Positions 1,182-43,907 of a stretch of DNA of 64,000 bases are shown one piece after another. Below the pieces are notes generated by a model. The model worked only from the letters and a program-made list of their open reading frames with translations, was not told the DNA's origin and did not search any database. Made by a program: the position numbers and the translations under genes. This DNA is from a virus: positions 1-64,000 of the IMG/VR virus record IMGVR_UViG_3300034072_001395; one strand, given 5' to 3'. Numbering within the stretch: position 1 is the stretch's first letter; every line of letters begins with the position of its first letter.

Positions 1182-2783
1182 ATGAGCCTGATGGATCGGC
1201 ACTTCGCCGACATGGTCAGTCGGCTGACCACCTCGACGCGCTACGACGGCATGGCGTCTGTGCCCGGCTACGGTCTGGCGAACACCAAGCCGCCGAACGT
1301 CACCACGTCGAACATCACGGTGCAGCCGTTCAATATCACGGACCTTGACAGGAAGGAGGCGCCTGTGGCGACCGTCCCCGCGACTTTCAAGCTGGAGCCT
1401 GGCGCCTTCTACGCGGCCGTGATCGTGCCGCGTGGTGCGGGCAAGCTCACGATGGACAGCGAGTTCCTCGGCTACGCCTACGCCGCGGGCAACTCCGCGC
1501 AGATCCGCGAAGAACTGCGCAAGCAGGGTACGCTCTCCCGTCTCAAGGAGGACAGCGCGTGCGTCCTGATCGGCGCGTGGATCACGGTGACCGGGGACAT
1601 CGCATCGCTCAATGCCCCGAAGTACGTCTCCGCGGTCCTTGTCGAGGAGTGCGGCTACGATCTGGAGCGCAGCGCGTGGCTTTACGCACAAGCCCGCCAG
1701 GGCAATCGAGACTTCGCCCACGTCAAGCCGATGGCGCAGCCGGCGAAGGCGCAGGAGGCGCCCGCTCCTGTCCCGGTGGGGAAGGAAGCGCCCGCCCCGG
1801 CGAAGAAGGCGCCCACGAAGAAGGTTTCCAAGAAGAAGGAGCCCGGCGTGATCATCGAGCCGAACACGTTCTACGCGGCTGCTCTGGTGCGTGATGGCGA
1901 AGGCCCGCTGCGCGACGAGGACATCGTGGCGGTCACGCCTGCGGGTGAGCACTTCTACGAAACCCCGCAGGAGATCGCAGAGGCGCTCGGGCTCGCGGGA
2001 TCCGATCACATCCCTGACGGGCGCAGCGTTGTCATCGGCCTTTGGCGTGAGTTCACGGTGCGGCGTGACATTGGGCTCTACGACTACATGGACTCGGGCA
2101 CAACGGCGGAGTGGTTGGTGCGCATGATCGACGACGCGATCGCATCCTTCGAGGAGGAGCAGCGCACCGCTTCGCCAACTTCTTCCTTGAAGTCCTTGCG
2201 CGCCTCCGAGCCCGCTGTTACCCCTGTTGAGGCGGTCGCCCCCGCGATCGTCGCCACCCCCGCCGCGGCTGCCGCCGCGATCGTCACCACCCCCGAGCCG
2301 GTCGTCGAGCCGGTGATCACCAAGCAGGAGCCCCCGATGGCCGCCACTCCCTCCACGCCCGCCAGCACCAACCCCACCGACGCCAGCACCGCGCTGACCA
2401 CGCACGCGGACTGGAACCGCAAGTTCCTCTCCTCCGGCATGGAGGGCGCGAAGGACGGCGTCGCGGCCGCCGCCGCGGAGCTGGTCACCGACGCCACGCT
2501 CAAGGCCCTGTGCGCCGCCTTCCCGTCCGCGAAGATGTGGGTCAGCATCATCAACGACACCGACATCGGCCGCGCGACGCTGCTCCTCCTGACGCCCTTC
2601 CTGATCGGGCACCTCACGCTCGTGATGCCCGGCGTCGTCCCCGGCGACCCCGAGAACGTGCGCGCCATCTGCGGCCGCGCGTCCCGCGCCATCGTCAGCG
2701 GCCGGTTCGCGTCCTTCCTGACGAACCTCCGCAGCGGGCTCGTCGGCGCCTTCAAGGGCATCGACGAACTCAGCGCCGACTAA
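1182..2783 (+). CDS. modular protein with a duplicated domain, unknown function
   Basis: 533 residues. Residues about 66-150 and 222-300 are two diverged copies of one domain: both carry an EP-x2-FYAA start, a central SAQIREEL / TPQEIAEAL helix and a (V)LIGAW / VIGLWREFTV strand. Lys/Pro/Ala-rich linkers follow each copy. The C-terminal part (about 385-533) is a separate, more hydrophobic domain (TLLLLTPFLIGHLTLVMPG). Each of the three modules is preceded in frame by an SD-like GGAG and a start codon (GTG 1365, GTG 1848, ATG 2337), so shorter products from internal starts are possible. Own promoter at 1128-1156. It converges on the giant virion gene with a 4-bp overlap. Function not recognised; a structural or assembly role is only a guess. 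Confidence 0.8.
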   Translation: MSLMDRHFADMVSRLTTSTRYDGMASVPGYGLANTKPPNVTTSNITVQPFNITDLDRKEAPVATVPATFKLEPGAFYAAVIVPRGAGKLTMDSEFLGYAYAAGNSAQIREELRKQGTLSRLKEDSACVLIGAWITVTGDIASLNAPKYVSAVLVEECGYDLERSAWLYAQARQGNRDFAHVKPMAQPAKAQEAPAPVPVGKEAPAPAKKAPTKKVSKKKEPGVIIEPNTFYAAALVRDGEGPLRDEDIVAVTPAGEHFYETPQEIAEALGLAGSDHIPDGRSVVIGLWREFTVRRDIGLYDYMDSGTTAEWLVRMIDDAIASFEEEQRTASPTSSLKSLRASEPAVTPVEAVAPAIVATPAAAAAAIVTTPEPVVEPVITKQEPPMAATPSTPASTNPTDASTALTTHADWNRKFLSSGMEGAKDGVAAAAAELVTDATLKALCAAFPSAKMWVSIINDTDIGRATLLLLTPFLIGHLTLVMPGVVPGDPENVRAICGRASRAIVSGRFASFLTNLRSGLVGAFKGIDELSAD

Positions 2784-5700: not shown

Positions 5701-8700
5701 AGACCTCCTGCATGCCGCCCCGGATGACCTCGGCGGCGTTCACGTTGCCGCTCGACGTGATCGGGGCACCGTAGGGGTCCACGAGGCCCGGCTCCCCGGA
5801 CAGGTAGCGGTACATCAGGTCGCTGCTCGGCGACTTCTGGATGATGTTGATCGCGTCGCCGATCCCCTGCTCGACCTCGTTGGCGAGCGTGGCGAGGAAG
5901 GACCGGATGGGCGCCGGGGCGCGCAGGTACGGCGCCTGGGCGGCCGCCCCGATGAAGGGGATGGAGAGGATCTGCGCGATCTGCCGGATGAGGGGCGGGC
6001 CCTTGCCGTCGTCGTAGAACGGCGCGCTCAGGGCCTTGTCGATGGCCTCGGTCAGCGACCGGGCAACGACCCGCTCGCCCGCACGGCGGACACCGATGGG
6101 CGGCGTGACGGCCTCCACGTCGATCGCCTTCTGCGCCGACCGCCCCGACCGGATGGCGGGGATGTCCGCGGGCGACACGGGGGCGAACCCGCGCGCCGTG
6201 AACAGCGGGACCGGGTGGTAGTTCACGGACAGGTGGGGTTGATCGTCGATGAACGCCTGCAAGTCGTCGGGCGGCGTGACGCTCTTGTCGGCGGCCTTCT
6301 GCCACGGGGTCGCAGGCACCGGGACGTGGAGATCTCCAGTAGCAAGGTTGCTGCCCGCCATGAACTCGACCAGCTCGTCTTCCGTCATGCTCGACTTGAT
6401 GATCCGCTCGTAGATCGCCACGCCGAGCGCCTTGCGGGTCTCACGGTCCGCCCGGTTGAACTCGGCGCCCGTGATGCCGGCCGCCTGGAGCGCCTTGCGC
6501 TTGGCGGTGTAGCGGATGAGCGCGTCGTCGAGCGCCTTCTCGTAGGCCGCCGCCGAGTACGGGATGTCCTCGCCAGCGAACCGGATGACGATCTGGTAGT
6601 CGTCCGTCTCCTCGGCGGGCGGCTTGAGGTGCTTGGCGATGACGGCCTCGGCCTCGTCGGACATCGGCTTGACGAGCGCCTTGGCGGGGACGCCGCCCGG
6701 CGGGTCGATCATCAGCGGCACGGTGGAAGCGCCGTAGGACACGCGCGTCTGGATGCCGCCGGTCGCCGGCGGGGAGCGCACGCCCTCCAGGGCGGTCAGG
6801 GCGCTCTTGAGCGCGCGGGCCATGCTCGGATCCTCCAGCGCCGCCTGCGTGGCCTCCGCCGCCTCTGGGACCGCCCCGAAGAACGGCGCCGCCGTCTGGC
6901 CGCGGAGCATGGCCGCCGTGCGCTTGGCCGCGAGGCCGCGGATCTCGGCGTTGATGCGCAGCGCGCTCTCGATGGCGTCGAGTTCCGCCGACTGCGCCAC
7001 GAGGCCGTTGGCCGTCCGGTACTGCTGCGCGTCCGCCTGGATCTGCTCCAGGCGCGCGGCCAGCGCGGCCAGGCCACTCTCGGCGCGCTCGACGGCCTTC
7101 TCGTCGGGGGAGAGGGCCGCGCGGGCCCGCTCGTTGACGACCTTGAACACGATCGCCGCACCGGCCTCGTCGGCCTGCACGTCGTCGGCGAAGGTCAGCG
7201 GCACGTCGATGTAGTCGGCCCCGGCCAGGTCCTTGTTGCCCTGGCGGACGCGGGACGCGACGTTGAACAGCGCCTGCACGTCGGAGGCCGACCGCCCCTC
7301 GATGGCCTTGATGTCGCCCTTGTCGTCGACGACGATCCGGGCGATCACATCGAACACCGGCTCGCCGCCCTTGGCCTTCGGCGGTACGGCGGCCGGAGGG
7401 GGCGCGGGAGGTGGCGGCGGAGCGGCCTGGACGGGCGCAGGAGGCGACGCGGGCTCGGGGGCGGGTGCCTGGGTGGGCGCGGGCGCAGGCGCGGCGGAAG
7501 GGGCCTCCACGGGCGCCGCCGGGGGCGGGGCCTCAACCGGCGCCTTCGCCTTGGCCGCCTCCTTGGCCGCCTTCTCCGCCGCCTTGGCCTCGGCCTTGAT
7601 GCGCTTGGCCTCCGCGCCGAACGTCCCGGTGAACGCCTGCGGGATGCTGATGGTGCCCTTGGACCCCTTGGCGAGTGCCTCGATCTGCGCCTTGATCGCG
7701 TTGCCGTGCGCGACGATCTCGTCCGGGGTGAGCAGCGTGTTGCGCGCCACGAAGTCGAGGAAGTCGCCGTCGCCCTTGGCCGCCAGGAACGCCGCCCGGT
7801 CGAGGTCAGAGGCGAAGTCCACGTTGCGCGTGCCGACCTTGAGCGTCGGGGTGCCGCGGAGGTTCGCGGGGAGGCGCGGGTGCTTCTCCGGCTTCGCCTT
7901 CGGCGTGGCGTCCTTCGGCTTGTCCGCCTTCGCGGCGGCCTCGATGGCGCCGGGCACCTCGACCTTCTTGATGTTGTAGACGGTGTTGCTGCGGTTGCTG
8001 AAGGCCACCTCCAGGCGGAGACCCACGGCGCGGATCCGCTCGTCAACCGCCGCAGCCAGGGCGTCGCCGTACTCGCCCGTGGCATCCACGATGAGCGTCG
8101 GGAAGCCCTTCGCCGCAGACCGCTGGATGGCGGTGCGGTGGAGGCGATCGACCTCGGCCAGAGCGGCGTCGGCGTCGTCCGCCTTGTCGATGAACTCGCG
8201 GACCTTGGGGCCCTCCTCCGGGCGGCCGATGTCGTCGGTCTGCCACTTGCCGAACTTGACACCCTCGGGAGCGGGCACCGCAGCCGGCACGCGGAGGATG
8301 GTCGGCTTGTCGGGGTCGGCGCTCCCCTTGGTGGTCTTGCCGACGGCCTCGCTCAGCGCCTTGGAGACGGCCTGGATGTTCGGCATATCGGCGTTGAGCA
8401 TGTCGAACGGGCGCCCGAGCACGGAGGACAGGAAGCCTTCGATGGAGCGACGCGCATCGTCGGTGAGATCCGTACTGGCAAGCGTGTAGATTGCCGCGTC
8501 GATGGGAGACGCGAACCGCACCGCGTAGTGGCCCGTGCGGTTGCCGACCGTGGCGCGGATCGGGGCGCGGGGCAGGGCGTCGGGCAGCGGGGTCGCGCTG
8601 GCAGCCTTGCTGAACAGCGGCACGTCGCCGATCTGCTTGTTGTCGAACAGGATGGTCTTGACGGCCCGGCCGTAGTCGGGGACGTAGACCATCGCGGTGC

Positions 8701-11700
8701 GCAGGCCGAGGTCGCGGGCCACGCGATCGAACAGGCGGGGGACTTGATCGTTGTAGAAGGCCACGACGCCGTTGTACGCCTTGGGGTCACTCTCGGGCGT
8801 CGCTCCAACGGCGCGGGCTGCGAGGTCGCCCTCGGGTGCCGCGATGCCCTTGACGCCCCGGCGAGCGGCCTCGATGACGGCGGCGCGGATGCCCGCGAAC
8901 TTCCACAGGTCGCCGTCGAGGGGGCCGTCGCCCTTCACGCCGTCCTTGTTCTTCTGGTAGTGATCGCTCTGGAGTTCGTCCATACCGAACACTTCGCCCA
9001 CTTCGGAGTCGCGGGTCTTGCCGCGGACGTGAACGGCCGTCTGCTCCGTGAAGTGGTAGCGGTACTTGCCCGGCGCGGGGACCTGCGCTGCGTCCTCCAG
9101 CACAATCTCGGCCGTGTCGCGGCCGCCGGGGATCGTGTAAGTCTCGTAGCGGACACCTTCGATGTCGCGCGCCATCTCCCCGGGGCGCGAGGGGTCGATG
9201 CTCGCGCCAGCCAGTGCCTTCTGCCGCTCTTGCAGATTGGCAGCCTTCCGCCGCGCCTGCGTGTAGTCGTCCACTACGGGCTGCTTCATCTGCTCGACAA
9301 GCGCCTTGCGACTCTGCTGCGGCGCCTTTGCCAGCTCAGTCACGCCGAAGCGACGGAAGAAGCCGAGATTTGCGTCGACATGAGCAAACAAGCGCACCCA
9401 CGGGGCCATCTCCGGAGATGCCTGGCGCGCAAGGCGGTCAAGCACCGCCGCGCGGTGGCGATTGGGCACATCAAGCAGCGCATAGGGCAGTCCTGCAAGG
9501 GACACAGAAGCAACCCCATCATCAGTTGCGCCGCTCAGAAGGGAGTGCGCCTTGTATTCCCGCACGAAGTCAGCCGCGTCCTCGAAGTGTATCACGGCGA
9601 TTGGCGCGTTCACGTCAACGACAGGGAACGCCTGTTGCGCAAGCAGGGACTCCAACTCGTGCGCTTCCCCTTCCGCGCGCCTGACGAGGTCCGTCGCCGC
9701 GTCTGCCTCCGCAAGTGCGGCCTCCAGTGCCTCCTCCACCTGACGGCGCCCGACAAGCGCAACGCCGCTTCCGCGCACCGTGAACCGCTCCAGCGTCCCG
9801 CGCAGGGCCTCGCTCGCCTCCTCCTTGGTCACGAACTTGTCGCCGCGACCCTTGACGCCGTCGATGAACGCGGCGTAGCCGAGCACGTCCTTCTCGGCGT
9901 CCTTCACGCCGCGCGTCTTGAGGTGCGCCTCGAACTGGTCGACGGGCATCCGCCGGCCGGGCATGGCCTCGATGGCCTTCTCCATCCGCGAGACGAAGCC
10001 CGGGGTGACGAAGGCGGCCTCCTCGGCGACCTTGCTGAACATGGCACCAGCATCGACGCCCTCCTCGATGGCGCCCGCCGTGTCGTCGAACTTGTCCGCA
10101 GGCACCCAGGCGAGGCTCTCAAGGAACTTGCGCGTGCGGAGGTCGAAGGCACCCTGCGCGACCACGGGGGGCACGCCGTTGGCGAGGTCCTCCAAGAACG
10201 CGGTCCACCGCTCCTTCAGTGCGCGTTCGGCGGCGGCCACTTCGGTGATGTCCGAGAGCGCGCCGCTGCGCAGGCGCGCCATGAACAGGTCCTCTTGGAA
10301 GCCGCGGAACGTCTCGGCCACCGCATCGTGCCCGTGCGCCGCCGCCACCTGCGTATACATGCTGCGCGCCACGTCGGCCAGCGCGTTGAGCGCCTGCTCA
10401 GCGGGAGAGCCGACGCGCAGCGTGCCCTTGGCAACGCCCTTCTCGACGACGGCCTTGGCGCTCTGGATCAGCACGAGGTCGGTCATCTTCTCGACGACGT
10501 ACTCGTCGAAGTTGGCGTAGCGATACGCGCCTTCCGGGTGGAAGTCGGACAGTCCGCCCGCGACCGCATCGAACGCGCCGGGGGTGCGCGCTGCGAAGGC
10601 TGCGCGCTCGATGATGAACTGCTTGTAGAGCGCCGCGAGCGTGTCCTTCGGCAAGAACTGGCTCATGGTGTGCCAGACCTCGTGAATGACCGTGCGTGTG
10701 AACGCCCCCGAGTCGATCGTGTGCCGCGCGATCCCGACGACCTGGCTCGCCATGTAGTTGACGCCGCTCACCAGAGACGCCGCCGACGAGTTGATCGCAC
10801 TGGAGGGGACAACGGCAAGGGCGAGCCCCTTGAGGCGTTCGGTTCCGAGCATCGAGACGAAGTGCTTGATCACATCGTACTCGTAGTCAGTGACAGTCCG
10901 CGTCCCAGCCCCCGCGCGACCCGCCCGAGCGCGCTCACGCCGGATCACGTCGAGGATGCTCTTGCGACCCTTCCGCCTCCGAAGGGCTGCCCGCTCGAAC
11001 CACGTCAAGGTGCTCCGCTTGAAGCGCGACGCGGACGCATTGGTGAGGATCGTCGCTGCGTCATCCGTCAGCGCCTCCCCGGCCTCTGCAAGTTCGCTCC
11101 GCGCCGCTGCGCGCACGCTCTCCAGGGCCCCGCGCAGTCCGTCCGTCGTCGTGCGGCTGTCGTAGAAGCGCCCGAGCGCGGCATACACCGCAGCAGACGT
11201 CTTCGGCGGCAGCGGGATGGCCGCTTCAAGGACAGCCCGCATCGCATCCAGCGCGGGGTAGGGGACGTACTCAAGGCCGCTGAAAGTCTCGATCGTCCGC
11301 AGCATGCCCGAAGCCACCGCGTCCGCGGCACGCAGGGCGCCGCCGGCAGAGCGATCTGCGCCCCAGGGCAGAGAGCCGGCGCTGCGCTGTGCGAACACGG
11401 CGCGCATGTCGTCCACTTCCTTGATCGGGAAGGCATCGACAATCTGCGCCAGAAGGTCCGCTTCCTGCGGATCGTGGAGAAGTGCGGCGCGCAAACGTGC
11501 GGGAGATGCCTCCGGGAACGCTGCCATCAGTCGCGCCTGCGCTGCGTCGTGCGCTGCGGCCAAGAGGCGAGAGCCGCGAGACGTGCCTGCGTAGACCTCT
11601 CCCGCCTCCTGGCGCACGGCTGCGATGATGTCCTCATAAGCGCGCGGGGCTGCCGACTCCAGAACCACGTCCTCGATCGTCTCCCGCGCCACCTCGCGCG

Positions 11701-14248
11701 AGATGACGCCGGGCGGCAGCGACGCCAGCACCGTCTCCGGGTCGTCGCTCGCCTGGAGGGCGCGCTCGACGGCTGCACGGTCAATCTTCTCCGTGACCTC
11801 CTCGGCCTCGTCCACGGTCAGGAACTCGCCGTCGCCGCGCACGAGGACGTACCCGTCGTCGCCGTGGCGGGCGAGGGTGACGCCCGCGGGGAGGGCGATC
11901 TTCTCCAGATCGTTCACGTCCAGCGCGACGGGGCGGAGGTCGCGCAAGGGGATCGGCTGGCCGTTGCGCAGGTCGGGCCCCTGGCCTGCCACCTGCTCCA
12001 CGAACTCCTTGCTCTTGCGGCCGCGCAAGATCAGCGCAGCACGCGCCCGCGTCTCCGCCCGCGACTTGGCGTTGGCGACGCGGGCCTGGTCGCGCAGGAC
12101 CTCGAAGGCATCGAGGCTGTCGCGGGCCTTGGTGACGACCTGCTCGGTCGCCACGTCGCCCTTGCGGGCCATGTCCATGACCAGCGACGTGACCTCGCTC
12201 TGGATGTCGTCGAGGTCGAGCATGTTGAGCGGATCCGAACGGTCCTGCTTCTTCGCCTCCGCGAGCATCTTGCGCCAGCCCGCCGGGTTGACCGGCAGCT
12301 TGCCGGCCCTCGCCAGATCGCGCAGGCGCTCGCGGGCCTCGGCCACGAGGCGGAGGCGCTTGGCGTAGTCGTACATGTCCGCGTACCGCTCGACATCGCC
12401 CGTGGCGTCGGCCGCGCGGCGCACCGACGGGTGCATCCCCGGGTTGTCGAGGAGCAGGGCGCGCGCCACGTCCGACCCCTCGGGGTCGATGGACGACGGG
12501 CGCCACGCCGGGTCGGTCAGGACCACGCGGAGCGGCGAGGAGCCGAGCGCGTCCTCCACGTCGGCGAGCACGGCACGGTCCTGATTGTCGAGTTCCGACA
12601 TCGCCTGTGGCGCGTTGCTCCGGGCGCTGCCGCCCTCGGCGTTGCGCGCGGAGGCCAGGTCACCGCGAAGGTAACTGTCGCCGATCGTGTCAAGAACCTG
12701 CGCGGCGGCAGCCCGCTCGCTGCGACCGGCGGCCGCCTCAAGGGCTCCCACGAGGGCGGCGCCCTCACCGCGGGGGGCCTCCTGGGCGCTCGCCACGGTC
12801 GGAGCGGCGGCCACGGTGGAGGGCTTGACGCCGGCGAAGCGGGCCACGGCGCGCTTCGCCTTGACGGCGGCACTCACGCCGAAGTCGGTGAGGACGCCAG
12901 GGGAGAACAGCGATGTGCCGAGGCCGGCGACGCCGCCACCGATGGCGCCCGCGATGCGACCGGCCTGCGAGGCGGCCAGCACGTCCTCCGGGCTGGCGCC
13001 CTGCCGCCGGGCCAGGGCGCGGGCCGTCCGCTCGCCGAGGGTGCCGTAGGTCGTGCTCAGGGCGGTGACCGGCTCCTCACCAAGCGCCATCGACGACCCG
13101 ACGGACTGGATGAACCGGGAGACGTTGGCGCCGATGTCCGCCGCGCTACCCGGGTCCTTGGACGCCGCGCGGATGTTCTGCGCGGTGCCGCGCCCGGCGC
13201 CGATGGCGGCCGACATCACCTTGTCGTCGAGGTAGAACACCTGGTCCGCGACGGTCGGCGACTGGAACACCGCGTTGCCATTCACGTCGATGCCCATGTA
13301 CTGCACGGGCGCGTCGAACGCGGCGACCTTGGCGGCGGTCGCGTAGTCGCCCTCGCCGTACAGCTCGTTGAAGGACTTGCCCGTCAGGACGCTCTGCGGG
13401 ATCATGAAGCCCGCGGTGTCCGTGGCGAGGGCACCGACCTGGCGCCCCTGGAGCGAGAGCCCGGCGGCGAGCCGGACGGCGCGCGCGCGGATCCGCTGGT
13501 ACTCCAGCATGTCGGGCTCGGGGTTGCCCGTCTGCGCGATGAGCTTCTCCGTGATGGTGTCGATCAACTGCCCGAACATCTGCTCGGGCGGCAGACCGCT
13601 CCGCGTCTCCACCACGTCGGGGTTGGCCTTCTTGAACGCCTCCACGTCCTCGCGCAGACGCCGCTGCGCCGCGGACCCTGCGGCCGCGATGCCGCCGAAG
13701 GTGGTGCTCGGATCAGCGAAGAACGTCGGTGCCGGCACCACGCGCACGCCGTCGGAGCCGGCGCGGTGCGCCCGGTCGAGGTCGTCGACGAGGGCGTCGT
13801 AGGTCTGCGAGCCGGTGCGACCGGCCTCGAACCAGGGCTTGAGGTCCACGTCCGCGGCACGCTTGATCGCGTCGGGCGTGGTGCCCTTCTCGGCGGCGAC
13901 GTTGCCCAGCACGTCGTCGAAGGTCAGCGGCGACTCGGCGGCCTTGGCGCGGACACCGGCCTCGTACACCGACTTGCGCGCGTCTGCGGAGGAGACGGGC
14001 TTCGTGGTCCGCGTGGTGACGGAGGGAGGGGCGAAGGACGGCAGCGAGGGAGGCGCGTCAACCGCGCCCTTGACGGGCGGTGCGACTGGCGGCGCGGCAG
14101 TCTCATTGGCCGACGGATCGGCGGCTGGCCGCGCGACGGGAGGGGCGGAAGGCGCCAGGGAAGGGGGCGCATCCTCCGTGGCAGGCGCCGGGTCTGCGAC
14201 TCTCCGAACGACGGGAGGGCTGAACGACGGAAGGGACGGAGATGCCAC
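2780..14248 (-). CDS. giant polyvalent internal virion protein (3822 aa)
   Basis: Begins at a GTG with an AGGAG site. Order: Pro/Ser-rich N-terminus (about 1-90); helical region; HEVWH at about 1187-1191, a zinc-metalloprotease HExxH signature inside TRTVIHEVWHTMSQF, with an acidic FDEYVVEKM stretch further on; MDELQSDHYQ at about 1756-1765, which matches the EIQSDWHQ motif seen in many phage large polyvalent proteins; a Pro/Ala-rich linker at about 2229-2289; then a mainly helical C-terminal third with FFLPFWAWSKNN near 3433, also typical of polyvalent proteins. Such proteins are carried in the capsid and delivered with the DNA; the protease and other activities are inferred from motifs only. 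It ends the leftward late operon. Antisense to it lies a 10-kb open frame, judged a GC-skew shadow. Confidence 0.9.
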   Translation of the reverse strand: MASPSLPSFSPPVVRRVADPAPATEDAPPSLAPSAPPVARPAADPSANETAAPPVAPPVKGAVDAPPSLPSFAPPSVTTRTTKPVSSADARKSVYEAGVRAKAAESPLTFDDVLGNVAAEKGTTPDAIKRAADVDLKPWFEAGRTGSQTYDALVDDLDRAHRAGSDGVRVVPAPTFFADPSTTFGGIAAAGSAAQRRLREDVEAFKKANPDVVETRSGLPPEQMFGQLIDTITEKLIAQTGNPEPDMLEYQRIRARAVRLAAGLSLQGRQVGALATDTAGFMIPQSVLTGKSFNELYGEGDYATAAKVAAFDAPVQYMGIDVNGNAVFQSPTVADQVFYLDDKVMSAAIGAGRGTAQNIRAASKDPGSAADIGANVSRFIQSVGSSMALGEEPVTALSTTYGTLGERTARALARRQGASPEDVLAASQAGRIAGAIGGGVAGLGTSLFSPGVLTDFGVSAAVKAKRAVARFAGVKPSTVAAAPTVASAQEAPRGEGAALVGALEAAAGRSERAAAAQVLDTIGDSYLRGDLASARNAEGGSARSNAPQAMSELDNQDRAVLADVEDALGSSPLRVVLTDPAWRPSSIDPEGSDVARALLLDNPGMHPSVRRAADATGDVERYADMYDYAKRLRLVAEARERLRDLARAGKLPVNPAGWRKMLAEAKKQDRSDPLNMLDLDDIQSEVTSLVMDMARKGDVATEQVVTKARDSLDAFEVLRDQARVANAKSRAETRARAALILRGRKSKEFVEQVAGQGPDLRNGQPIPLRDLRPVALDVNDLEKIALPAGVTLARHGDDGYVLVRGDGEFLTVDEAEEVTEKIDRAAVERALQASDDPETVLASLPPGVISREVARETIEDVVLESAAPRAYEDIIAAVRQEAGEVYAGTSRGSRLLAAAHDAAQARLMAAFPEASPARLRAALLHDPQEADLLAQIVDAFPIKEVDDMRAVFAQRSAGSLPWGADRSAGGALRAADAVASGMLRTIETFSGLEYVPYPALDAMRAVLEAAIPLPPKTSAAVYAALGRFYDSRTTTDGLRGALESVRAAARSELAEAGEALTDDAATILTNASASRFKRSTLTWFERAALRRRKGRKSILDVIRRERARAGRAGAGTRTVTDYEYDVIKHFVSMLGTERLKGLALAVVPSSAINSSAASLVSGVNYMASQVVGIARHTIDSGAFTRTVIHEVWHTMSQFLPKDTLAALYKQFIIERAAFAARTPGAFDAVAGGLSDFHPEGAYRYANFDEYVVEKMTDLVLIQSAKAVVEKGVAKGTLRVGSPAEQALNALADVARSMYTQVAAAHGHDAVAETFRGFQEDLFMARLRSGALSDITEVAAAERALKERWTAFLEDLANGVPPVVAQGAFDLRTRKFLESLAWVPADKFDDTAGAIEEGVDAGAMFSKVAEEAAFVTPGFVSRMEKAIEAMPGRRMPVDQFEAHLKTRGVKDAEKDVLGYAAFIDGVKGRGDKFVTKEEASEALRGTLERFTVRGSGVALVGRRQVEEALEAALAEADAATDLVRRAEGEAHELESLLAQQAFPVVDVNAPIAVIHFEDAADFVREYKAHSLLSGATDDGVASVSLAGLPYALLDVPNRHRAAVLDRLARQASPEMAPWVRLFAHVDANLGFFRRFGVTELAKAPQQSRKALVEQMKQPVVDDYTQARRKAANLQERQKALAGASIDPSRPGEMARDIEGVRYETYTIPGGRDTAEIVLEDAAQVPAPGKYRYHFTEQTAVHVRGKTRDSEVGEVFGMDELQSDHYQKNKDGVKGDGPLDGDLWKFAGIRAAVIEAARRGVKGIAAPEGDLAARAVGATPESDPKAYNGVVAFYNDQVPRLFDRVARDLGLRTAMVYVPDYGRAVKTILFDNKQIGDVPLFSKAASATPLPDALPRAPIRATVGNRTGHYAVRFASPIDAAIYTLASTDLTDDARRSIEGFLSSVLGRPFDMLNADMPNIQAVSKALSEAVGKTTKGSADPDKPTILRVPAAVPAPEGVKFGKWQTDDIGRPEEGPKVREFIDKADDADAALAEVDRLHRTAIQRSAAKGFPTLIVDATGEYGDALAAAVDERIRAVGLRLEVAFSNRSNTVYNIKKVEVPGAIEAAAKADKPKDATPKAKPEKHPRLPANLRGTPTLKVGTRNVDFASDLDRAAFLAAKGDGDFLDFVARNTLLTPDEIVAHGNAIKAQIEALAKGSKGTISIPQAFTGTFGAEAKRIKAEAKAAEKAAKEAAKAKAPVEAPPPAAPVEAPSAAPAPAPTQAPAPEPASPPAPVQAAPPPPPAPPPAAVPPKAKGGEPVFDVIARIVVDDKGDIKAIEGRSASDVQALFNVASRVRQGNKDLAGADYIDVPLTFADDVQADEAGAAIVFKVVNERARAALSPDEKAVERAESGLAALAARLEQIQADAQQYRTANGLVAQSAELDAIESALRINAEIRGLAAKRTAAMLRGQTAAPFFGAVPEAAEATQAALEDPSMARALKSALTALEGVRSPPATGGIQTRVSYGASTVPLMIDPPGGVPAKALVKPMSDEAEAVIAKHLKPPAEETDDYQIVIRFAGEDIPYSAAAYEKALDDALIRYTAKRKALQAAGITGAEFNRADRETRKALGVAIYERIIKSSMTEDELVEFMAGSNLATGDLHVPVPATPWQKAADKSVTPPDDLQAFIDDQPHLSVNYHPVPLFTARGFAPVSPADIPAIRSGRSAQKAIDVEAVTPPIGVRRAGERVVARSLTEAIDKALSAPFYDDGKGPPLIRQIAQILSIPFIGAAAQAPYLRAPAPIRSFLATLANEVEQGIGDAINIIQKSPSSDLMYRYLSGEPGLVDPYGAPITSSGNVNAAEVIRGGMQEVFEAWRASDEGKAVLPNIAPRQVVGGEFTDQPVPDVKVTAEMLLSELIEATREARKRGERIDVPAWINEHYIVTTTDGASAASKVSPKVEAALGVIMRAQVDRAPVRQTISVEQGKIAPEFLGDLRRTLFMQGDTDPNVYTPSDLPLLERLLDPAPDYADPMAIKRLFDDITSIVGLNTTDAAQAQNTRAINLAVMFAAYAQARHAAWRQMQAGVAVSPDQRALLSRALNGEYIEPSERAEADRLLRVFGPADTLVEVDIAGRREYLPSSAAQALGQSLMKARDPSLSAFRARGAGAMAQATADRLVRLANVAAIRGVFALRQGKIVTDTVDSFMRVITDIGVKAGILSLVRSAPSTLYGMIPGLAPVMQSIKSGADAASLRGTLLDVGEQGAAAAERIIEFFRTADPAARQKAADAAADAAARGMFDPSVRAIWLGEPVTVRTPAGAMTAQELRAVAQTYGVLSSFDTAVRSNANFALLVGMSIEDARKNPAKAARAFLAANPDTPPSVAREILRAPWKFVNFMADTTTNTIEAVGQIERLSLYVTMMRDGLDPVSAARSTAAVLLNYGRTVHGVDRSLILRFFLPFWAWSKNNNRRMLDLGATAQGLVALKRMRRYYQGTFSLMQNVVDAYGTDEYGIDARAMTPTQRDFYWSMVGALEDEYGYPLPPERVASLRGIVRGSVGARVFVKGQAYTTLPAAQASRAAIGARAFASRDDEQSVPRRIAPGRGSETTLPQYARDRGVVGLRYYNPRTASPHETALFIMQEPELASAISHFASLGNLAGYVLGASASGITTAMGEPIDYLPATDPLLSADTAMDVPFFQEVRTVLEGASAQTPTGATVRIPETLASLLIRANPDFVQVKRTALPLPFESANGETVTHVTEYRTSATVIAAVNLFTNYMPSDALKTVKDIEAVKKVIEEADTTDPAATVFKLWAAALGRPATIIADPDPTLPFDPAAMKERPPRVGGR

Positions 14249-35001: not shown

Positions 35002-35343
35002 TCAATCGGGGTAGACGTAGGGCTTGTAGTCCGCGCGACGGCTCCGCGGGTCGGGCGATCCGGTCCGCGCGTGCTCCGCCATCGCCCGCCACCACGCCAT
35101 CTTCTCGATGTCGCCCTCTGGATCGCCCTTCCGGCCGCCTCGGACGGCGTACTTGAGGGCGTGCGTGTCGCAGGCGTGCGCGAACAGCTTGTCCGCGACC
35201 ACCCGGATGTGCCCGTCGGGCGTGCCGGGAGGACAGAGAGCCTCCTTGGCGGTGACGAAGGCCATGTCGCGCATCATGTCGACGGCCTCGCGGGCGCCGA
35301 CGAGGTAGCGCGCGGGCGCCTTGGTGTTGCCGTTGTCGCTCAT
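35002..35343 (-). CDS. hypothetical protein
   Basis: 113 residues from MSDNGNTKAPARYLVGAREA; start chosen because ATG 35343 overlaps the upstream stop as ATGA. It is helical, with two Cys and several His (ALCPPGTPDGHIRVVADKLF, HACDTHALKYAV) and a basic, Tyr-rich C-terminus. The frame extends upstream but that part is low-complexity and shadows the membrane-protein gene. Not recognised. Confidence 0.6.
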   Translation of the reverse strand: MSDNGNTKAPARYLVGAREAVDMMRDMAFVTAKEALCPPGTPDGHIRVVADKLFAHACDTHALKYAVRGGRKGDPEGDIEKMAWWRAMAEHARTGSPDPRSRRADYKPYVYPD

Positions 35344-35489
35344 GCGCGCCACGCGAAGGCCGCGAAGGCCAGGAAGGGCAGGCCCGCCAGCGAGAGCATC
35401 GGGTTGTGCCCCTGGCTGTGGAGGGCCAGGGTGTTCCCGAGGACGATGGCGGCGCCGACGATGAGCGTGGGCCAGGGTGCGCGCAGCAT
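35340..35489 (-). CDS. 49-residue membrane protein
   Basis: MLRAPWPTLIVGAAIVLGNT opens the protein; two hydrophobic segments (about 8-24 and 31-46) separated by a short HSQGHN turn make a two-pass membrane hairpin. RBS GAGGAG lies 8 nt before the ATG, and the stop overlaps the next ATG (ATGA). Size and topology would suit a holin or a small envelope effector; there is no other evidence for lysis function here. Confidence 0.6.
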   Translation of the reverse strand: MLRAPWPTLIVGAAIVLGNTLALHSQGHNPMLSLAGLPFLAFAAFAWRA

Positions 35490-35905: not shown

Positions 35906-36337
35906 CTACTGCGCGTTGACGCCGAGGACACCGCGCGCCTTGCGCTCGGTCCCCCGGCTGCGGATGATGTCCAGGGCGTCGCGGATGTGCGCCAGCGCGC
36001 GGGCGTTGCTCTCGTGCGCGAAGGGGCCGGCCTGGAACGCCTCCAGGCGGTCGACCAGCACGGCGGCCAGGGCGGCGTCGACGCAGCCGGTGAGCTTGCC
36101 GTCGGGGCCGCGGGGGCCGTGCTGGAAGTCCACGGCCGCGACGATCTTGCCGCCGACGTTGACCTCGTAGTGGTGCGAGGCGCCGCCCGCGGCGGGGTCG
36201 CGCTCATCGCAGGTGATCACGAGGTCGGCGGCGCCGAAGGGGTCGATGTGTGCGAGGACCTTGCGCGGGAGCGGGTAGGGCAGGGAGCCCGTGAAGCCGG
36301 GGCAGGATGGGTTCAGGTCGATGATCTCGTCAGACAC
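35906..36337 (-). CDS. Tad1/Acb2-like cyclic-nucleotide sponge (candidate anti-defence)
   Basis: 143 residues from a GTG. N-terminal beta part: ADLVITCDERDPAAGGASHH then YEV and VAAVDFQHGP; C-terminal helical hairpin: AAVLVDRLEAFQAGPFAHES, NARALAHIRDALDIIR and TERKARGVLG. This order and the FQNGP / DRL-x2-FQxGPF-x4-N / R-x3-R-x2-RGVxG pattern are those of the phage Tad1 and Acb2 hairpin proteins, which sequester gcADPR or cyclic dinucleotides made by Thoeris and CBASS immunity. Phe101, Asn111, Arg128 and Arg132 have the F-x9-N-x16-R-x3-R spacing I recall for ligand-binding residues of Tad1. Several family positions differ (HES for CRE). Third gene of an operon with small membrane proteins. 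Function inferred. Confidence 0.7.
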   Translation of the reverse strand: MSDEIIDLNPSCPGFTGSLPYPLPRKVLAHIDPFGAADLVITCDERDPAAGGASHHYEVNVGGKIVAAVDFQHGPRGPDGKLTGCVDAALAAVLVDRLEAFQAGPFAHESNARALAHIRDALDIIRSRGTERKARGVLGVNAQ

Positions 36338-36563
36338 CGGACACCTCGGTGGACGCGGGGGCGTCCTCGGTCTCGGAGGGCGGCAGCTCGATGATCTCGG
36401 GCGCGGCCTCGACGGGCTCGCCGACCTCGGCCTCGACCTCGACGACGGGCGGGGCCTCCTCGACGGTCAGGATGATGGCGCCGTCGGTGAGCTTGAACAC
36501 CAGCAGGCCGAGCAGGGTGAGAAGCAGGGCGAAGATGCCGTGCTTGCGGTTCAGAGACGACAT
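36330..36563 (-). CDS. single-pass membrane protein with acidic Pro-rich tail
   Basis: 77 residues from MSSLNRKHGIFALLLTLLGL; one transmembrane segment at about 9-26 with a basic N-terminus inside, then a Glu/Pro/Val-rich tail (VEEAPPVVEVEAEVGEPVEA). Looks like a signal-anchored envelope protein; spanin-like in outline but without a coiled coil. Overlaps the Tad1-like start by 8 bp. Confidence 0.6.
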   Translation of the reverse strand: MSSLNRKHGIFALLLTLLGLLVFKLTDGAIILTVEEAPPVVEVEAEVGEPVEAAPEIIELPPSETEDAPASTEVSGV

Positions 36564-36803: not shown

Positions 36804-36832
36804 AGCGTAGCCCGGCGAGGCGCACCTGTCAA
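36804..36832 (-). promoter_or_regulatory. near-consensus promoter of the small leftward operon
   Basis: Minus strand TTGACA, exactly 17 nt, TACGCT. The -10 ends only 10 nt before the ATG at 36793, so the transcript would be almost leaderless. It overlaps the stop codon of the replication gene. Confidence 0.7.
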
Positions 36833-39800
36833 CTCGACCGGATGGCGTCGTCGGGGGCGTCCTTCCGGGCGACGTACATGCCGTCCGCGTCGTCGCCAGT
36901 TGCGGCGGCCCGGCGCTCGCGGTAGTCGTCGTCCTCGACGATCCGCTCCTGCCAGCGGCGGGAGAGCGCGTCCACCAGCTCCAGGCGGTCGGTGTCGACG
37001 TGGTAGACGCGCACGATCGCGCCGTCCAGGCCGCGGGACCGACGGGACTTCAACCGGAGGCCGACGCTGCGGAGCACCTGGGCGAGATACTGCGCGTGCG
37101 AGAGCGTCGGGCCCTCGGGGATCCCGAGCGCGGCCTGCTCGCGCCGGGTGGCCGAGAGGATCTCGGCGAGCCACTCGAAGGGGATCGCGCGACCATCGAG
37201 CAAGTTGCGGCGGGCCAGCTCACGCATCGTGAAGGCCGCGAGGCGAGCCGCGGGCAAGACCGTGCGGTACGTCATCGCCGTCTCACCGCGGGAGCGGTTG
37301 ACCTCGTAGCGGGCCACGGCGTCCCGCTTGCCCGTGCGCAGGAGCGACTGCTGCGCGTAGGCGAGCACCTGCTTCGGCAGCTTCCCGCGCAGAGCCTCGG
37401 AGCAGATGTCGACCTTCTGCTCGAAGTCCGCGGAGGACAGCGCGCCGCCGAACATGTGCAGGTAGCGGGTGGCCGTGTGCCGGATCTGCTCGTCGCGGGA
37501 CCGGGGGCCCGACCGGGCGATCCGCGTCATGTCCGCTTCGGGGAGCGGCTCGGCCTCGGCGATCTTCGTGGCGCGCTCCAAGTGGATCGCCTTGGCGATC
37601 TCGCGCACGGCCTCGGCGGCGCCGCTGTCGAGCACGTCCTCGACGTACTCCTCGAAGTTGTGCGTCTCCCGCAGCTTCGGGAGCGTCCAGCCGCGGCCCG
37701 AGAGGTAGCTGGCGGCGATGGAGGCCGCCTGCGCCGAGCCGAGGCGCTGGAGGTTGAGGTCCTGGCGGTACTCGGAGAGCAGGTAGGCCGTGGACTTGGC
37801 CTCGACGCCGAGCGCCCGGCGGGCCGTCTCCACGTCGCGGAGGAAGTGCTGCTCGATGGCCGTCGGCGAGAAGCGCCAGGAGTCGGCCGCGGGCGGCTTG
37901 CGGCTGGTGCCCGAGATGAACACCCGCGGGTCGTTGGGATGGCGGACGCGGTGGAGCATCTGCTCGACGACCGACGCGCTGCCGATGAAGTCGCGCCCGA
38001 CGAGGACGTGGCGGTGGTCGTACCAGCCCACCCGGTCGAACGAGACGCCGGTGGACATCGCCGTGTTGTAGACCAGAACGTCGTGGGAGAGCGCGTCCTG
38101 GGAGAAGTCCTCGGGGTCCGCCTCGCCGTCGCTGCCGACGATCACGCGCACCGTGCGGCCGGTGCCGGCGACCCGCCCCTCCAGCAACTTGCCGATGGCC
38201 TGCGCCATCTTGCGCTCGTAGCAGGCGATCGCCACCCGCTTGCCGGCCTCGACCTGCGACACGATCAGCTCGATGTGCTTGTCGGAGGACGACGGACCCT
38301 CGCCGGGCGCGCCATCGTACACCTCGTCCTCCTCGTCGGACGGCGGGGTGCCCAGGTGGACGAAGGGCCAGCAGTGGCCGATGGTCGTCATCTCGACGAA
38401 GTTGCAAGCGCCCTGCGCGAGCGCCGACCGGGCGTGCTCGATGTCGCGGATCAGGTTGAGGGTGCCGAGGCTCGCGTGCGCGTCGGCCAGGATGATCCGC
38501 GAGGCCAGGGAGCAGCAGTAGACCAGCCGGGAGTACGTCTGCTGGGCGTCCTTCGACTTCAACATCGAGTAGATCTGCGTGAGCATCTGCTCGATCTCGT
38601 CGATGAGGATCACGCTGCCGTCGGGCTTCCACTTCTCCGTGACGTTCCGCAGGGCGGCGAAGGACGAGGACGTGTCCGCGTCGGCCACCTTGCTCCCCGA
38701 GCCAGCGGCCGCGTGGACCAGGTCGAGCCGGGCGGCGAGGTTCTTGGCGAGGGAGACGAAGGGGCTGATCGCCAGGACGCGCCGACGCTCGGCCCGCGCC
38801 TGCTTGACGGCGGCCTCCATCAAGTGCGTCTTGCCGCTGCCGGTGCGGGCCGTCAGGAGCACGAAGTCGGGCAGGTTCTCGGGGAACTGCGCGTAGCCGC
38901 GCTCGTCGAGGGGCAGCTCGACGGACGCGCGCAGGATGCCCTCGCAGTCCTGCATGGACAGCGCGTGGCGGGGCATCGCCGTGGGCACGATCTCGGACGG
39001 CAGCGCGTCGACCGTCGAGGCCACACGCGCGGACAACCGCGGCGACGTGCCCTGCTTGAACCGGGCGTAGTCGTAGCGGAACACCGTATGGCACTTCCAG
39101 CAGGTGAAGTCATCCTTGTCCTCGACGGCCCGCAGCGAGGTGTTGCTGCCGCACGACGGGCAGCCCGTCCGGTCCTCGGGACGCTCGGCGCGCGGCCAGA
39201 CCGCGAAGGTCCACGGCACCTTCTCTCGCTCGGCGCGCGGCTTCAGCGTGCGGCCCTCCTTCTTGGCCTTGCGCTGCTCGGCGCGCAGCGCACGCAGCTC
39301 GTCGCGCGACATGCGCGAAGGGGCCGGGAGCCAGTCGCTCTCGTGCTTGATGCGGTCGAACCAGGGGTCGAACGAGGGCGTGTCGTTGTGGAACAGGTCC
39401 GGCCGGTACAGCCGGGCGGTCTTGTCCGAGGCGCGGTGGCCGCCGCCAGGGACCGGGAAGATGCGGGTGCCGATGTCCTTGGCGCTGGCGTCCCACCACC
39501 AGAGCGACTCGCCCTTGAAGTTGTGCCACGCCTTGATCACGTCCTTCATACGGGAAGGCGACCAGGGGGACGAGGGGTAGCCCTCGCCATCGGGCATCCA
39601 GTAGATCAGGCAGAGGCCGTGGCCGGTGTAGATGATCCGGTTGGGACGGCCGAGTCCCGCCTCGCCGGTGGCTTCGAGGACGTGCTCGACGAACTGCACG
39701 CCGTCCATCCAGGCCAGCACGGCGTCCTCGGACATCGCGTAGAGAGCGGCCTTCCGGGCGCTGCGGTCCTCGCCGAGCGAGACAGCCAGCGGGCTATCGC

Positions 39801-39996
39801 AGATGTCAACGTCGATGGTGAGCGCCGCGACCTTCGCCAGGTCGCAGGCCCGCATCTTGTTGCCGTCGGCGTCCTTGCGGAAGAAGCCGCCGGCGGTGAA
39901 CCACTGAGCCCGGATGTCGCCGGCGCGCTTGACGGAGCGTGCCCGGAGTTCCATGCCCGCCGGAGGGCGCGGGAGGTAGTCGGCCTGGATCGCCAT
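36829..39996 (-). CDS. primase-helicase replication protein
   Basis: 1055 residues from MAIQADYLPRPPAGMELRA (start has AGGACA upstream; the longer frame does not). Order: archaeo-eukaryotic primase-like part (ALTIDVDICDSP with a DxD pair near 66, RIIYTGHGLCLIYWM with its sGhG motif); zinc ribbon CPSCG...CWKC at about 277-303; superfamily-2-type helicase with Walker A TARTGSGKTH at about 382, VILIDEIEQM at about 464, RIILADAHASLGTLN, and YNTAMSTGVSFD near 647; helical C-terminus. The helicase motifs resemble the herpes-type origin-binding / CyRepA1 replication proteins. It probably opens and primes the phage origin. The upstream gap holds repeats shared with the 52-53 kb noncoding region. Confidence 0.8.
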   Translation of the reverse strand: MAIQADYLPRPPAGMELRARSVKRAGDIRAQWFTAGGFFRKDADGNKMRACDLAKVAALTIDVDICDSPLAVSLGEDRSARKAALYAMSEDAVLAWMDGVQFVEHVLEATGEAGLGRPNRIIYTGHGLCLIYWMPDGEGYPSSPWSPSRMKDVIKAWHNFKGESLWWWDASAKDIGTRIFPVPGGGHRASDKTARLYRPDLFHNDTPSFDPWFDRIKHESDWLPAPSRMSRDELRALRAEQRKAKKEGRTLKPRAEREKVPWTFAVWPRAERPEDRTGCPSCGSNTSLRAVEDKDDFTCWKCHTVFRYDYARFKQGTSPRLSARVASTVDALPSEIVPTAMPRHALSMQDCEGILRASVELPLDERGYAQFPENLPDFVLLTARTGSGKTHLMEAAVKQARAERRRVLAISPFVSLAKNLAARLDLVHAAAGSGSKVADADTSSSFAALRNVTEKWKPDGSVILIDEIEQMLTQIYSMLKSKDAQQTYSRLVYCCSLASRIILADAHASLGTLNLIRDIEHARSALAQGACNFVEMTTIGHCWPFVHLGTPPSDEEDEVYDGAPGEGPSSSDKHIELIVSQVEAGKRVAIACYERKMAQAIGKLLEGRVAGTGRTVRVIVGSDGEADPEDFSQDALSHDVLVYNTAMSTGVSFDRVGWYDHRHVLVGRDFIGSASVVEQMLHRVRHPNDPRVFISGTSRKPPAADSWRFSPTAIEQHFLRDVETARRALGVEAKSTAYLLSEYRQDLNLQRLGSAQAASIAASYLSGRGWTLPKLRETHNFEEYVEDVLDSGAAEAVREIAKAIHLERATKIAEAEPLPEADMTRIARSGPRSRDEQIRHTATRYLHMFGGALSSADFEQKVDICSEALRGKLPKQVLAYAQQSLLRTGKRDAVARYEVNRSRGETAMTYRTVLPAARLAAFTMRELARRNLLDGRAIPFEWLAEILSATRREQAALGIPEGPTLSHAQYLAQVLRSVGLRLKSRRSRGLDGAIVRVYHVDTDRLELVDALSRRWQERIVEDDDYRERRAAATGDDADGMYVARKDAPDDAIRSS

Positions 39997-40112
39997 GCGG
40001 TGTCCTCGAAGGTGCCGGCCGCGTAGCGCGTGCATCGGCGGCACGCCAGCCACTTAGCACGGCGGAGCGCAACGCGCACTTGACGGTGTGTGGGCGCCTC
40101 GGCCACGATCGC

Positions 40113-40789: not shown

Positions 40790-41611
40790 ATGCCGCCCCG
40801 CCGCAAGTCCGTCGCACAGATCACGCACTCCCGTCCGCCGCCGACGCCCGAGGAGATCGCTGCCGCCGAGCAGGGCGAGGCGTTCGCCCGAGCCTTGTTC
40901 CCGAAGGCGAAGGAGCGCGGCCTCAACGTCCAGTTCAGCTCGACGCCCGCGGAGCAGACCCGCAACGGCTACATGCGCCTGCCCGGCTTCCAGCGCCCGG
41001 CCGTGTGGTCGCCCGAGATGGCGCTCGGCTACGTCCGCAGTGTGCTGTGTGAGCGGAAGTTCCCGGGGCTGTTCATCGCGCGGGCGCGGTACGCGGACGG
41101 CGGGCGCGACGTGCTCGACATCCTCGACGGTCAGCAGCGCATCCTGGCGCTCGGCGGCGTGCTCCAGCGGGGCTCCGTCGCCGACGTGGCCGCCATGCGC
41201 GGTGAGCGGATCGTGGGCGCGGCGCCACACCTAAACCTCCTGGCGAGGTCCGCGGACGACGTGCTCGTGGCCCGGGGCGCTGACGAGCAGCCGCCACCAG
41301 TGTTCGGCGACCCGGAGGAGGGCGCGCTGGACTGCTCGCGCATCCCGGTCGCGTGCATGCGACGGGTCGCGTACTTCACCCACCGGCGTTTCTCGGACTA
41401 CATCTGCGAGAACACCGGATGCTCCCGCGAGCAGGGCTTCTCCGTTTCCGCCTGGGCCTACGCCGCCTGCGGCAACATCTACCTGCCGTTCCTGATCGTC
41501 TACCAGAGCGCCAGCTTGCAGGATGTCAAGGACATGTTCCGGTCGATCAACACGCCCGGCGTGCAGATCACGGAGGCGGAACTGGAGGCGCTGCTCGCCG
41601 CCGACGATTGA
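40790..41611 (+). CDS. DUF262 (ParB/GmrS-like) domain protein
   Basis: 273 residues. Diagnostic motifs: LPGFQRPAVWSPEMALGYVR at 64-83 (the YQR-x2-VW helix), LDILDGQQRILAL at 109-121 (the conserved DGQQR), and MFRSINTPGVQITEAEL at about 249-265 (the F-x2-IN-x2-G-x2-LT motif). DUF262 proteins hydrolyse nucleotides or act as nuclease regulators in GmrSD-type defence; stand-alone phage versions have unknown roles. No C-terminal HNH (DUF1524) domain is present, so it is a GmrS-like half only. Own promoter; next to a DNA methyltransferase. Confidence 0.8.
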   Translation: MPPRRKSVAQITHSRPPPTPEEIAAAEQGEAFARALFPKAKERGLNVQFSSTPAEQTRNGYMRLPGFQRPAVWSPEMALGYVRSVLCERKFPGLFIARARYADGGRDVLDILDGQQRILALGGVLQRGSVADVAAMRGERIVGAAPHLNLLARSADDVLVARGADEQPPPVFGDPEEGALDCSRIPVACMRRVAYFTHRRFSDYICENTGCSREQGFSVSAWAYAACGNIYLPFLIVYQSASLQDVKDMFRSINTPGVQITEAELEALLAADD

Positions 41612-41636
41612 CGCTCGCCTTGCGCCAAGTTATGCC
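41608..41636 (+). promoter_or_regulatory. sigma-70-like promoter for the methyltransferase
   Basis: TTGACG, exactly 17 nt, TATGCC, beginning inside the DUF262 stop codon and ending 26 nt before the ATG at 41662. Confidence 0.6.
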
Positions 41637-41661
41637 CCGTTTGCCCGCAAAGGAGCCCCCA

Positions 41662-42516
41662 ATGTCCGTCGATACGATCCTCCTCCGCGCCGACTACCGC
41701 GACACCCTCGCCCACGTCGCTGCGTTGGGCGGCGCTGACCTCATCGCTTTCTCGCCGCCATACTGCGACGCCCGGAGCTACGGCATGGGCGCGTCATGGG
41801 GCGACGCTGACTATGCTGCGCTCGGAGACGCGGTGTTCGCCGCGCTCAAGCCGGGCGGGCACGCGCTGGTGAACGTCGACGCGCCGGTGCGCAACTGGCG
41901 CCCTGGCTTCGGCACCGAACGCGGCTTCCATCCGTGGCGCCTGATGCTGGACTGGGCCGAGCGTGTCGGTTTCCGGGTGCCGGACAGGCTCGCCTTCGGG
42001 CGGCTCGGCACGCCGGGCGCCTATAGCGGCCGCTTCCGCAACGACTGGGAGCCGCTGCTGTGGTTCCAGCGGCCTGGCGGTACGCCCTGGATGGACCGCT
42101 GGGCTATCGCGGAGCGGTGCGCGCCGTCCGCCGGAAAGTCTGGCGCTCGCCGAGTGGACGGCCAATTGGCTGTGCGGAAGCGGACGGGCCGTGCGGCTGA
42201 GGAGGGCTGGCGCCACCGCGGTACATTGTGGCATTACGGCGCCGTGGGTGGTGGCAACTCCGGCTCGCGTGATCTTGAGGCCGTCAACCACCCTGCCCGC
42301 TGGCCTTTGCGCCTCGCCCGCGACATCGTGCTCTGCTTCTGCCCCCCCGACGGGCTCGTGTGCGACCCGTTCGTGGGCGCGGGCACTACCGCGGTCGCAG
42401 CAGCCACCCAGGGCCGGCGCTTCGTCGGCGGGGACCTCGGCGCTCGGCAGGAGGACGGCGTACCGTGGGTGGACGTTGCGCGGGACGTGGTGCGGCGGGC
42501 GACGGCGCAACCGTGA
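41662..42516 (+). CDS. DNA methyltransferase, beta class (N4-cytosine or N6-adenine)
   Basis: 284 residues from the ATG after AGGAG. Catalytic motif IV SPPYCDARSYG at 31-41 comes before the AdoMet motif I DPFVGAGTTAVAA at 235-247, the order of the beta class. SPPY rather than DPPY favours N4-cytosine but does not prove it. The substrate motif cannot be read from sequence. Its N-terminal extension in the longer frame is discarded because it shadows the DUF262 gene. No cognate endonuclease is visible, so it likely protects phage DNA from host restriction. Confidence 0.85.
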   Translation: MSVDTILLRADYRDTLAHVAALGGADLIAFSPPYCDARSYGMGASWGDADYAALGDAVFAALKPGGHALVNVDAPVRNWRPGFGTERGFHPWRLMLDWAERVGFRVPDRLAFGRLGTPGAYSGRFRNDWEPLLWFQRPGGTPWMDRWAIAERCAPSAGKSGARRVDGQLAVRKRTGRAAEEGWRHRGTLWHYGAVGGGNSGSRDLEAVNHPARWPLRLARDIVLCFCPPDGLVCDPFVGAGTTAVAAATQGRRFVGGDLGARQEDGVPWVDVARDVVRRATAQP

Positions 42517-43012: not shown

Positions 43013-43416
43013 CGCCCTGGAGCATCCGCCGCGCGCTGCGCCTGCGGGCCGCCGACGCCATCGTCGGCGTCGTCGACCGGGTGGACGACCTGGCCGACGC
43101 GCTCAACGGTCTCGCCGACCGCGTGCGCGGCGAAGACGCTGAGCATGGAGAGGCCGCCCCCACCGACGGCGAGCCGACTGGCGACATCGTGGCGAAGGCG
43201 ATGGCCGGCTGCATCGAGATCCCCGAGGGCCTCCCGAAGATCATGCGGATGATCGACCGCGACTACAAGGGGATGAAGATCGCAGATTTCGTCGTGGCGT
43301 ACCTTGACGCTGATGGGCAACTGGCGATAGGTCTTGCGGGCCACCACCCCGACCTCTTCGCGCTCCTGTTGTGGGAACTGCAAGAGCAAGTCAGGGGAAC
43401 CCGCCAGGAGGAATGA
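43009..43416 (+). CDS. hypothetical protein
   Basis: 135 residues from MTPWSIRRALRLRAADAIVG. N-terminal amphipathic helices, an acidic linker (RGEDAEHGEAAPTDGEP), then an alpha/beta domain ending DGQLAIGLAGHHPDLFALLL. ATG overlaps the upstream stop. It ends in the Nudix gene's ribosome site. Not recognised. Confidence 0.65.
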   Translation: MTPWSIRRALRLRAADAIVGVVDRVDDLADALNGLADRVRGEDAEHGEAAPTDGEPTGDIVAKAMAGCIEIPEGLPKIMRMIDRDYKGMKIADFVVAYLDADGQLAIGLAGHHPDLFALLLWELQEQVRGTRQEE

Positions 43417-43421
43417 CCCGC

Positions 43422-43907
43422 ATGGACACCGCCCCCGTCAAGCTCGCCTACGCCGTCCTCGTGTTCCGCTACAAGCACCGGAAGGACACCGACTTCCAGT
43501 GGGGCGTGCTGTGCAACGGCAAGCGCCTGATGCCGTCGAAGCTCGCGCAGTTCGAGGGCACGACCGCCTTCTTCGGCGGCAAGATCGAGGACGGAGAGAC
43601 GCCGGAGGACGCGATGGAGCGCGAGCTGCGCGAGGAGCTGGCCTGGAACGACGAGGACTTCGACACGATGGGCCACCTCATCCGCCTCGACAGCATGGGT
43701 GGCGCGGCCTTCTTCGCCATCGACATCGGCGTCCTCGACGAGGACCGCCTGAGCAGCTTCGCGTCTGGCTGCGCCGAGGGCATCGTGGACCCGGTGCTGG
43801 AGAGCGCCTTCGCCGACACCCGCTGGGTGTCCTGGCCCGGCGGCCCGGACATCGGCGCCATCGCGCAGAAGGCCGTCGACAGCATCAAGGCCGCTGCGGC
43901 CGGGTGA
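43422..43907 (+). CDS. Nudix hydrolase
   Basis: 161 residues. Nudix box from Gly53: GKIEDGETPEDAMERELREE then LAW, matching GX5EX7REUXEEXGU except that the conserved Gly near the end is Ala74. The catalytic Glu residues (68, 71, 72) are present. Nudix enzymes cleave nucleoside diphosphates linked to another group (for example oxidised or modified dNTPs, NAD or ADP-ribose species); the substrate cannot be told. Start 43422 has AGGAGG at 10 nt; ATG 43413 is an alternative with no spacing. Part of the methyltransferase-led accessory block. Confidence 0.85.
   Translation: MDTAPVKLAYAVLVFRYKHRKDTDFQWGVLCNGKRLMPSKLAQFEGTTAFFGGKIEDGETPEDAMERELREELAWNDEDFDTMGHLIRLDSMGGAAFFAIDIGVLDEDRLSSFASGCAEGIVDPVLESAFADTRWVSWPGGPDIGAIAQKAVDSIKAAAAG

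What the first reader, a model, noticed from the sequence alone, without database searches (positions are those of the whole stretch)
35906..36337. Tad1/Acb2-like immune-signal sponge in a small membrane-protein operon
Seen: beta part, FQHGP element, then a helical hairpin DRLEAFQAGPFAHES-N...R-x3-R...RGVLG; Phe101, Asn111, Arg128 and Arg132 keep F-x9-N-x16-R-x3-R spacing. Established: Tad1 and Acb2 phage proteins bind gcADPR and/or cyclic di-/trinucleotides and block Thoeris/CBASS. Inferred: this gene is an early anti-defence factor. Its sequence departs from common members (HES for CRE, short N-terminus), so its ligand may differ. The operon also encodes three small membrane proteins and two unknowns, which may be further counter-defence factors.
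Basis: partly seen in the sequence, partly recalled or inferred. Interest (0 to 1): 0.75.

Follow-up and report, generated by a model that had tools for sequence, protein, structure and literature searches.

The report
Phage Tad1-type immune-signal sponge
This phage gene encodes a distant but clear relative of Tad1, a known viral protein that soaks up the small signal molecules bacteria use to trigger anti-phage defence; the find is real, but it is a new member of a known family rather than something new.

Summary
The minus-strand gene at 35906-36337 (143 aa) encodes a Tad1-family protein. Sequence search finds solved Tad1 structures at E 2.8e-12. A profile of the gene plus 57 relatives finds Clostridium botulinum prophage Tad1 (CbTad1) at E 1.5e-51. 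The AlphaFold model (pLDDT 82) has four strands and two helices and matches only Tad1 structures significantly, best to gcADPR-bound CbTad1 (TM 0.84 by target length). Phe101, Arg128 and Arg132 are invariant in 58 proteins and Asn111 is kept in 56.

Corrections: it is a Tad1, with the beta domain, not an Acb2. The N-terminus is not short; it carries about 25 extra, probably disordered residues. "HES for CRE" lies in a stretch that varies across the family. The Pfam Acb2/Tad1 hairpin model misses it, but also scores one clear relative below threshold.

The gene lies behind a replication helicase with three small hydrophobic proteins and several unknowns; nothing found supports a counter-defence role for these. 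The window belongs to an unclassified 96.6-kb virus record. Ligand and host are untested. Verdict: new, divergent member of a known kind.

The parts
35906..36337 (-). tad1-like gene, 143 aa, GTG start
   Evidence: Tad1 by sequence, profile and fold
36263..36337 (-). N-terminal extension (about residues 1-25) absent from most relatives
   Evidence: alignment and low pLDDT
36125..36262 (-). beta domain, residues 26-71 (strands 26-30, 38-42, 56-61, 64-71), with the conserved GGASHHY element and start of FQHGPR
35936..36079 (-). helical hairpin, residues 87-134, with F101, N111, R128, R132
36330..36563 (-). preceding gene, 77 aa, one predicted membrane segment; stop overlaps the tad1 start
   Evidence: no relatives in phage records
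36569..36793 (-). 74-aa small membrane protein
   Evidence: no relatives in phage records
35501..35896 (-). following gene, 131 aa, unknown
   Evidence: no family, no relatives
35340..35489 (-). 49-aa hydrophobic protein
36829..40053 (-). helicase/replication protein at the head of the same-strand block
   Evidence: PHROG 4913 E 3.9e-18; AAA domains

Best explanation
The gene encodes a phage Tad1 protein. By analogy with solved Tad1, it should form a hexamer of three interlocked dimers that tightly binds, without cutting, signal nucleotides made by the host during infection: glycocyclic ADP-ribose isomers from Thoeris TIR proteins in the dimer pockets, and probably cyclic trinucleotides and some dinucleotides from CBASS. 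This keeps the defence effectors inactive. Shown here: homology, predicted fold, conserved pocket residues, gene context. Inferred: oligomer, ligands, time of expression, and which defence is blocked.
For: phmmer to CbTad1 E 2.8e-12 and CmTad1 E 5.1e-5; family profile to CbTad1 E 1.5e-51; all 20 Foldseek matches with E at most 0.001 are Tad1 chains, best is the gcADPR-bound form, TM 0.74/0.84; F101, R128, R132 invariant in 58 and N111 in 56 of 58; R76 of the FQHGPR element shared with CbTad1; co-directional with a replication helicase. Tad1 mechanism as reviewed in PMC12043709.
Against: Only 30-40% identity to characterised Tad1; long branch in the tree; no Pfam hit; the 25-aa N-terminal extension is unexplained; no binding, host or expression data. 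That the four residues contact gcADPR in CbTad1 is recalled, not checked in the library held.
Confidence: 0.85

Rival explanations
1. A Tad1-family sponge with a shifted ligand range: it holds a cyclic nucleotide or ADP-ribose isomer other than those bound by CbTad1, made by the unknown host's defence.
For: Divergent branch with a long N-terminal extension and changed residues around 107-110; published Tad1 homologues differ in the cyclic dinucleotides they bind (PMC12043709).
Against: The core pocket residues are unchanged and the 107-110 stretch is variable in the whole family.
Confidence: 0.1
2. A structural or virion-associated protein that reuses the Tad1 fold.
For: Two relatives are annotated as structural proteins in Bacillus phage P59 and Lactococcus phage 1706, and a Tad1-like domain occurs in a larger solved phage protein, gp184.
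Against: The gene lies in the replication block, apart from the head and tail genes; the ligand-pocket residues are conserved; the annotations may be loose.
Confidence: 0.03
3. An Acb2 protein (hairpin only) rather than Tad1.
For: Acb2 and Tad1 share the helical hairpin and one Pfam model, PF24729.
Against: The query has the four-stranded N-terminal domain that Acb2 lacks; sequence, profile and fold searches return Tad1 chains and none named Acb2.
Confidence: 0.02

Closest known systems
CbTad1, Clostridium botulinum prophage Thoeris anti-defence 1 (PDB 7uav, 7uaw, 8smd, 8kbe, 8kbf)
   Same: Four-stranded domain plus two-helix hairpin, aligned pocket residues F/N/R/R, FQ-x-G-x-R element, C-terminal VLG-x-N tail
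   Different: About 31-39% identity; 25-aa N-terminal extension; AHES in place of SSRE before the pocket Asn
CmTad1 (PDB 8kbb, 8kbc, 8kbd)
   Same: Same fold, E 1.5e-6 by Foldseek
   Different: About 25% identity
Acb2 (anti-CBASS 2)
   Same: Helical hairpin and sponge principle
   Different: Acb2 has a short N-terminal helix instead of the beta domain and is 94 aa (PMC12043709); not returned by any search here
Tad1-like proteins of IMG/VR contigs L001 and L014
   Same: Nearest relatives, 46-54% identity over the matched part; share the GGASH element
   Different: No extension of the same length; the terminase and, for L001, the helicase of this phage are not found in their contigs

Membership tests
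Tad1 | Significant sequence similarity to characterised Tad1 | tested here: met
   E 2.8e-12 single sequence, 1.5e-51 with the family profile
Tad1 | Four-stranded N-terminal domain plus two long C-terminal helices | tested here: met
   AlphaFold model and Foldseek
Tad1 | Ligand-pocket residues (CbTad1 F, N, R, R) at the right spacing | tested here: met
   F101, N111, R128, R132; that these contact gcADPR is recalled, not checked here
Tad1 | Hexamer of three dimers | not testable with these tools
   only the monomer was predicted
Tad1 | Binds gcADPR and blocks Thoeris | not testable with these tools
   needs a binding assay and a phage plaque assay
Acb2 | Short hairpin protein without the beta domain | tested here: not met
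   143 aa with four predicted strands; no chain named Acb2 in the PDB hit lists
Pfam PF24729 Acb2_Tad1_hairpin | Score above the curated threshold | tested here: not met
   no hit at E up to 1; the relative L109 also scores below threshold (23.3 against 27) while L105 passes

The most novel reading that the evidence does not exclude
The divergent branch that holds this protein (with L014, L024, L091, L019, L001, L016) sequesters a signal other than the known gcADPR isomers and CBASS nucleotides, pointing to an undescribed nucleotide signal in its hosts.
Probability: 0.07. Interest if true: 0.65.

Novelty: new member of a known kind. Interest (0 to 1): 0.27.

Why it matters
It places a Tad1 sponge in an unclassified GC-rich phage with no close named relative, adds to the evidence of how widely this counter-defence fold is spread, and shows that the current Pfam hairpin model misses divergent Tad1 proteins. 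It suggests that the unknown host carries Thoeris or CBASS defence. It changes no concept.

Tried and rejected
Acb2 membership: rejected on predicted fold and search results. 'Short N-terminus': rejected, the protein has about 25 extra residues; no ATG, GTG or TTG codon lies near the start position of the relatives, and the GTG start has a GAGG motif. 'HES for CRE implies another ligand': weak, since positions 107-110 vary across the family. Counter-defence role of neighbours: the 131-aa protein and the two larger small membrane proteins have no match in phage records, the 131-aa protein none in viral contigs, and none of the neighbours tested occurs in the DNA fetched around other Tad1 genes. 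Plasmid-borne relatives: none found. Promoter and terminator scan: no more than chance. Relatives of the helicase in viral contigs: none found. The primary Tad1 structure papers are not in the library held.

Full report
Observation. The ORF at 35906-36337 (minus strand, 143 aa) is real: coding-type base composition, GTG start with a GAGG motif, and overlap with the stop of the gene before it. F101, N111, R128 and R132 align exactly with the corresponding residues of CbTad1 in the HMMER alignment.

Identity. A single-sequence search of the PDB finds CbTad1 at E 2.8e-12, CmTad1 at E 5.1e-5 and a protein called gp184 at E 0.0017. Pfam, NCBIfam and PADLOC give nothing for the query; PHROG 2428, without assigned function, matches at E 6.4e-19. 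Because a hairpin-profile miss was named as refuting, the Pfam model was checked on relatives: it hits a Clostridium homologue (L105, E 8.2e-9) but scores a Cupriavidus homologue below threshold (L109, E 7.5e-5). Its silence on the query is therefore best read as lack of sensitivity.

Family. A viral-contig scan with a four-sequence alignment confirmed 98 related stretches, of which 80 loci were kept; a bacterial-genome scan gave 17. An alignment of 58 proteins gives a profile that finds CbTad1 at E 1.5e-51 and CmTad1 at E 3.2e-28. Invariant in all 58: A53, Y57, Q72, G74, G84, F101, G104, R128, R132, G139; N111 is kept in 56. R76 of the FQHGPR element is shared with CbTad1 and occurs in 33 of the 58, whereas 22 have Ile there. 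From memory, this element lies at the cyclic-trinucleotide site of CbTad1; this was not checked here. In a tree the query falls with L014, L024, L091, L019, L001 and L016 beside the Clostridium-type clade, but on a long branch with weak support.

Fold. AlphaFold with this alignment gives mean pLDDT 82 and pTM 0.71: strands 26-30, 38-42, 56-61 and 64-71, helices 87-103 and 109-134, and low confidence for the first 20 or so residues. Foldseek against the PDB returns 20 matches with E at most 0.001, all Tad1 chains; the best is CbTad1 bound to 1''-2' gcADPR (E 1.1e-9, TM 0.74 by query length and 0.84 by target length, rmsd 2.3).

Context. The window is part of a 96,570-base virus record whose terminase and portal are only distantly related to known phages; the terminase matches named phages at about 23% identity over three quarters of its length. 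tad1 lies in a minus-strand block that begins with a helicase/replication protein (36829-40053), followed by two small membrane proteins, tad1, a 131-aa unknown, a 49-aa hydrophobic protein and a DUF3310-like protein. Early expression is plausible from this position but not shown. The neighbours have no detected relatives near other tad1 genes, so nothing supports a multi-gene counter-defence cassette.

Mechanism. As reviewed in PMC12043709, Tad1 is a hexamer of three dimers that holds gcADPR and cyclic dinucleotides in dimer pockets and cyclic trinucleotides at trimer interfaces, so blocking Thoeris and CBASS. The Panoptes paper reports that expressing CbTad1 triggers that defence, probably by sequestering 2',3'-c-di-AMP (PMC12657218). 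With fold and pocket residues kept, the same action is the best explanation here; ligand range and host remain open.

Verdict. A well-supported, divergent new member of the Tad1 family.

Noticed in passing
window 40790-41611 (+) and 41353-42516 (+): A GmrSD N-terminal (DUF262-like) domain protein (Pfam E 2.2e-12) directly followed by an N6/N4 DNA methylase ORF (E 4.5e-20): possibly a phage modification or restriction-related pair.
   Followed up: partly
window 43371-43907 (+): NUDIX hydrolase domain protein (Pfam E 1.5e-9); could act on nucleotides.
   Followed up: no
window 2780-14248 (-): A 3822-aa ORF with no PHROG match at E 0.001 and only a sub-threshold Pfam match: a giant phage protein of unknown function among the presumed structural genes.
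   Followed up: no
L006 2347-3363 (Burkholderia phage FLC9 gp131): The Tad1-like domain is the C-terminal part of a 338-aa protein whose N-terminal part reads like a cyclophilin-type peptidyl-prolyl isomerase (by eye): an unusual fusion.
   Followed up: no
PDB 8y6v chain I (gp184, 230 aa); L010 2914-3276; L012 2890-3243: Tad1-like domains in a larger solved phage protein and in two proteins annotated as structural; whether some family members travel in virions is unclear.
   Followed up: partly
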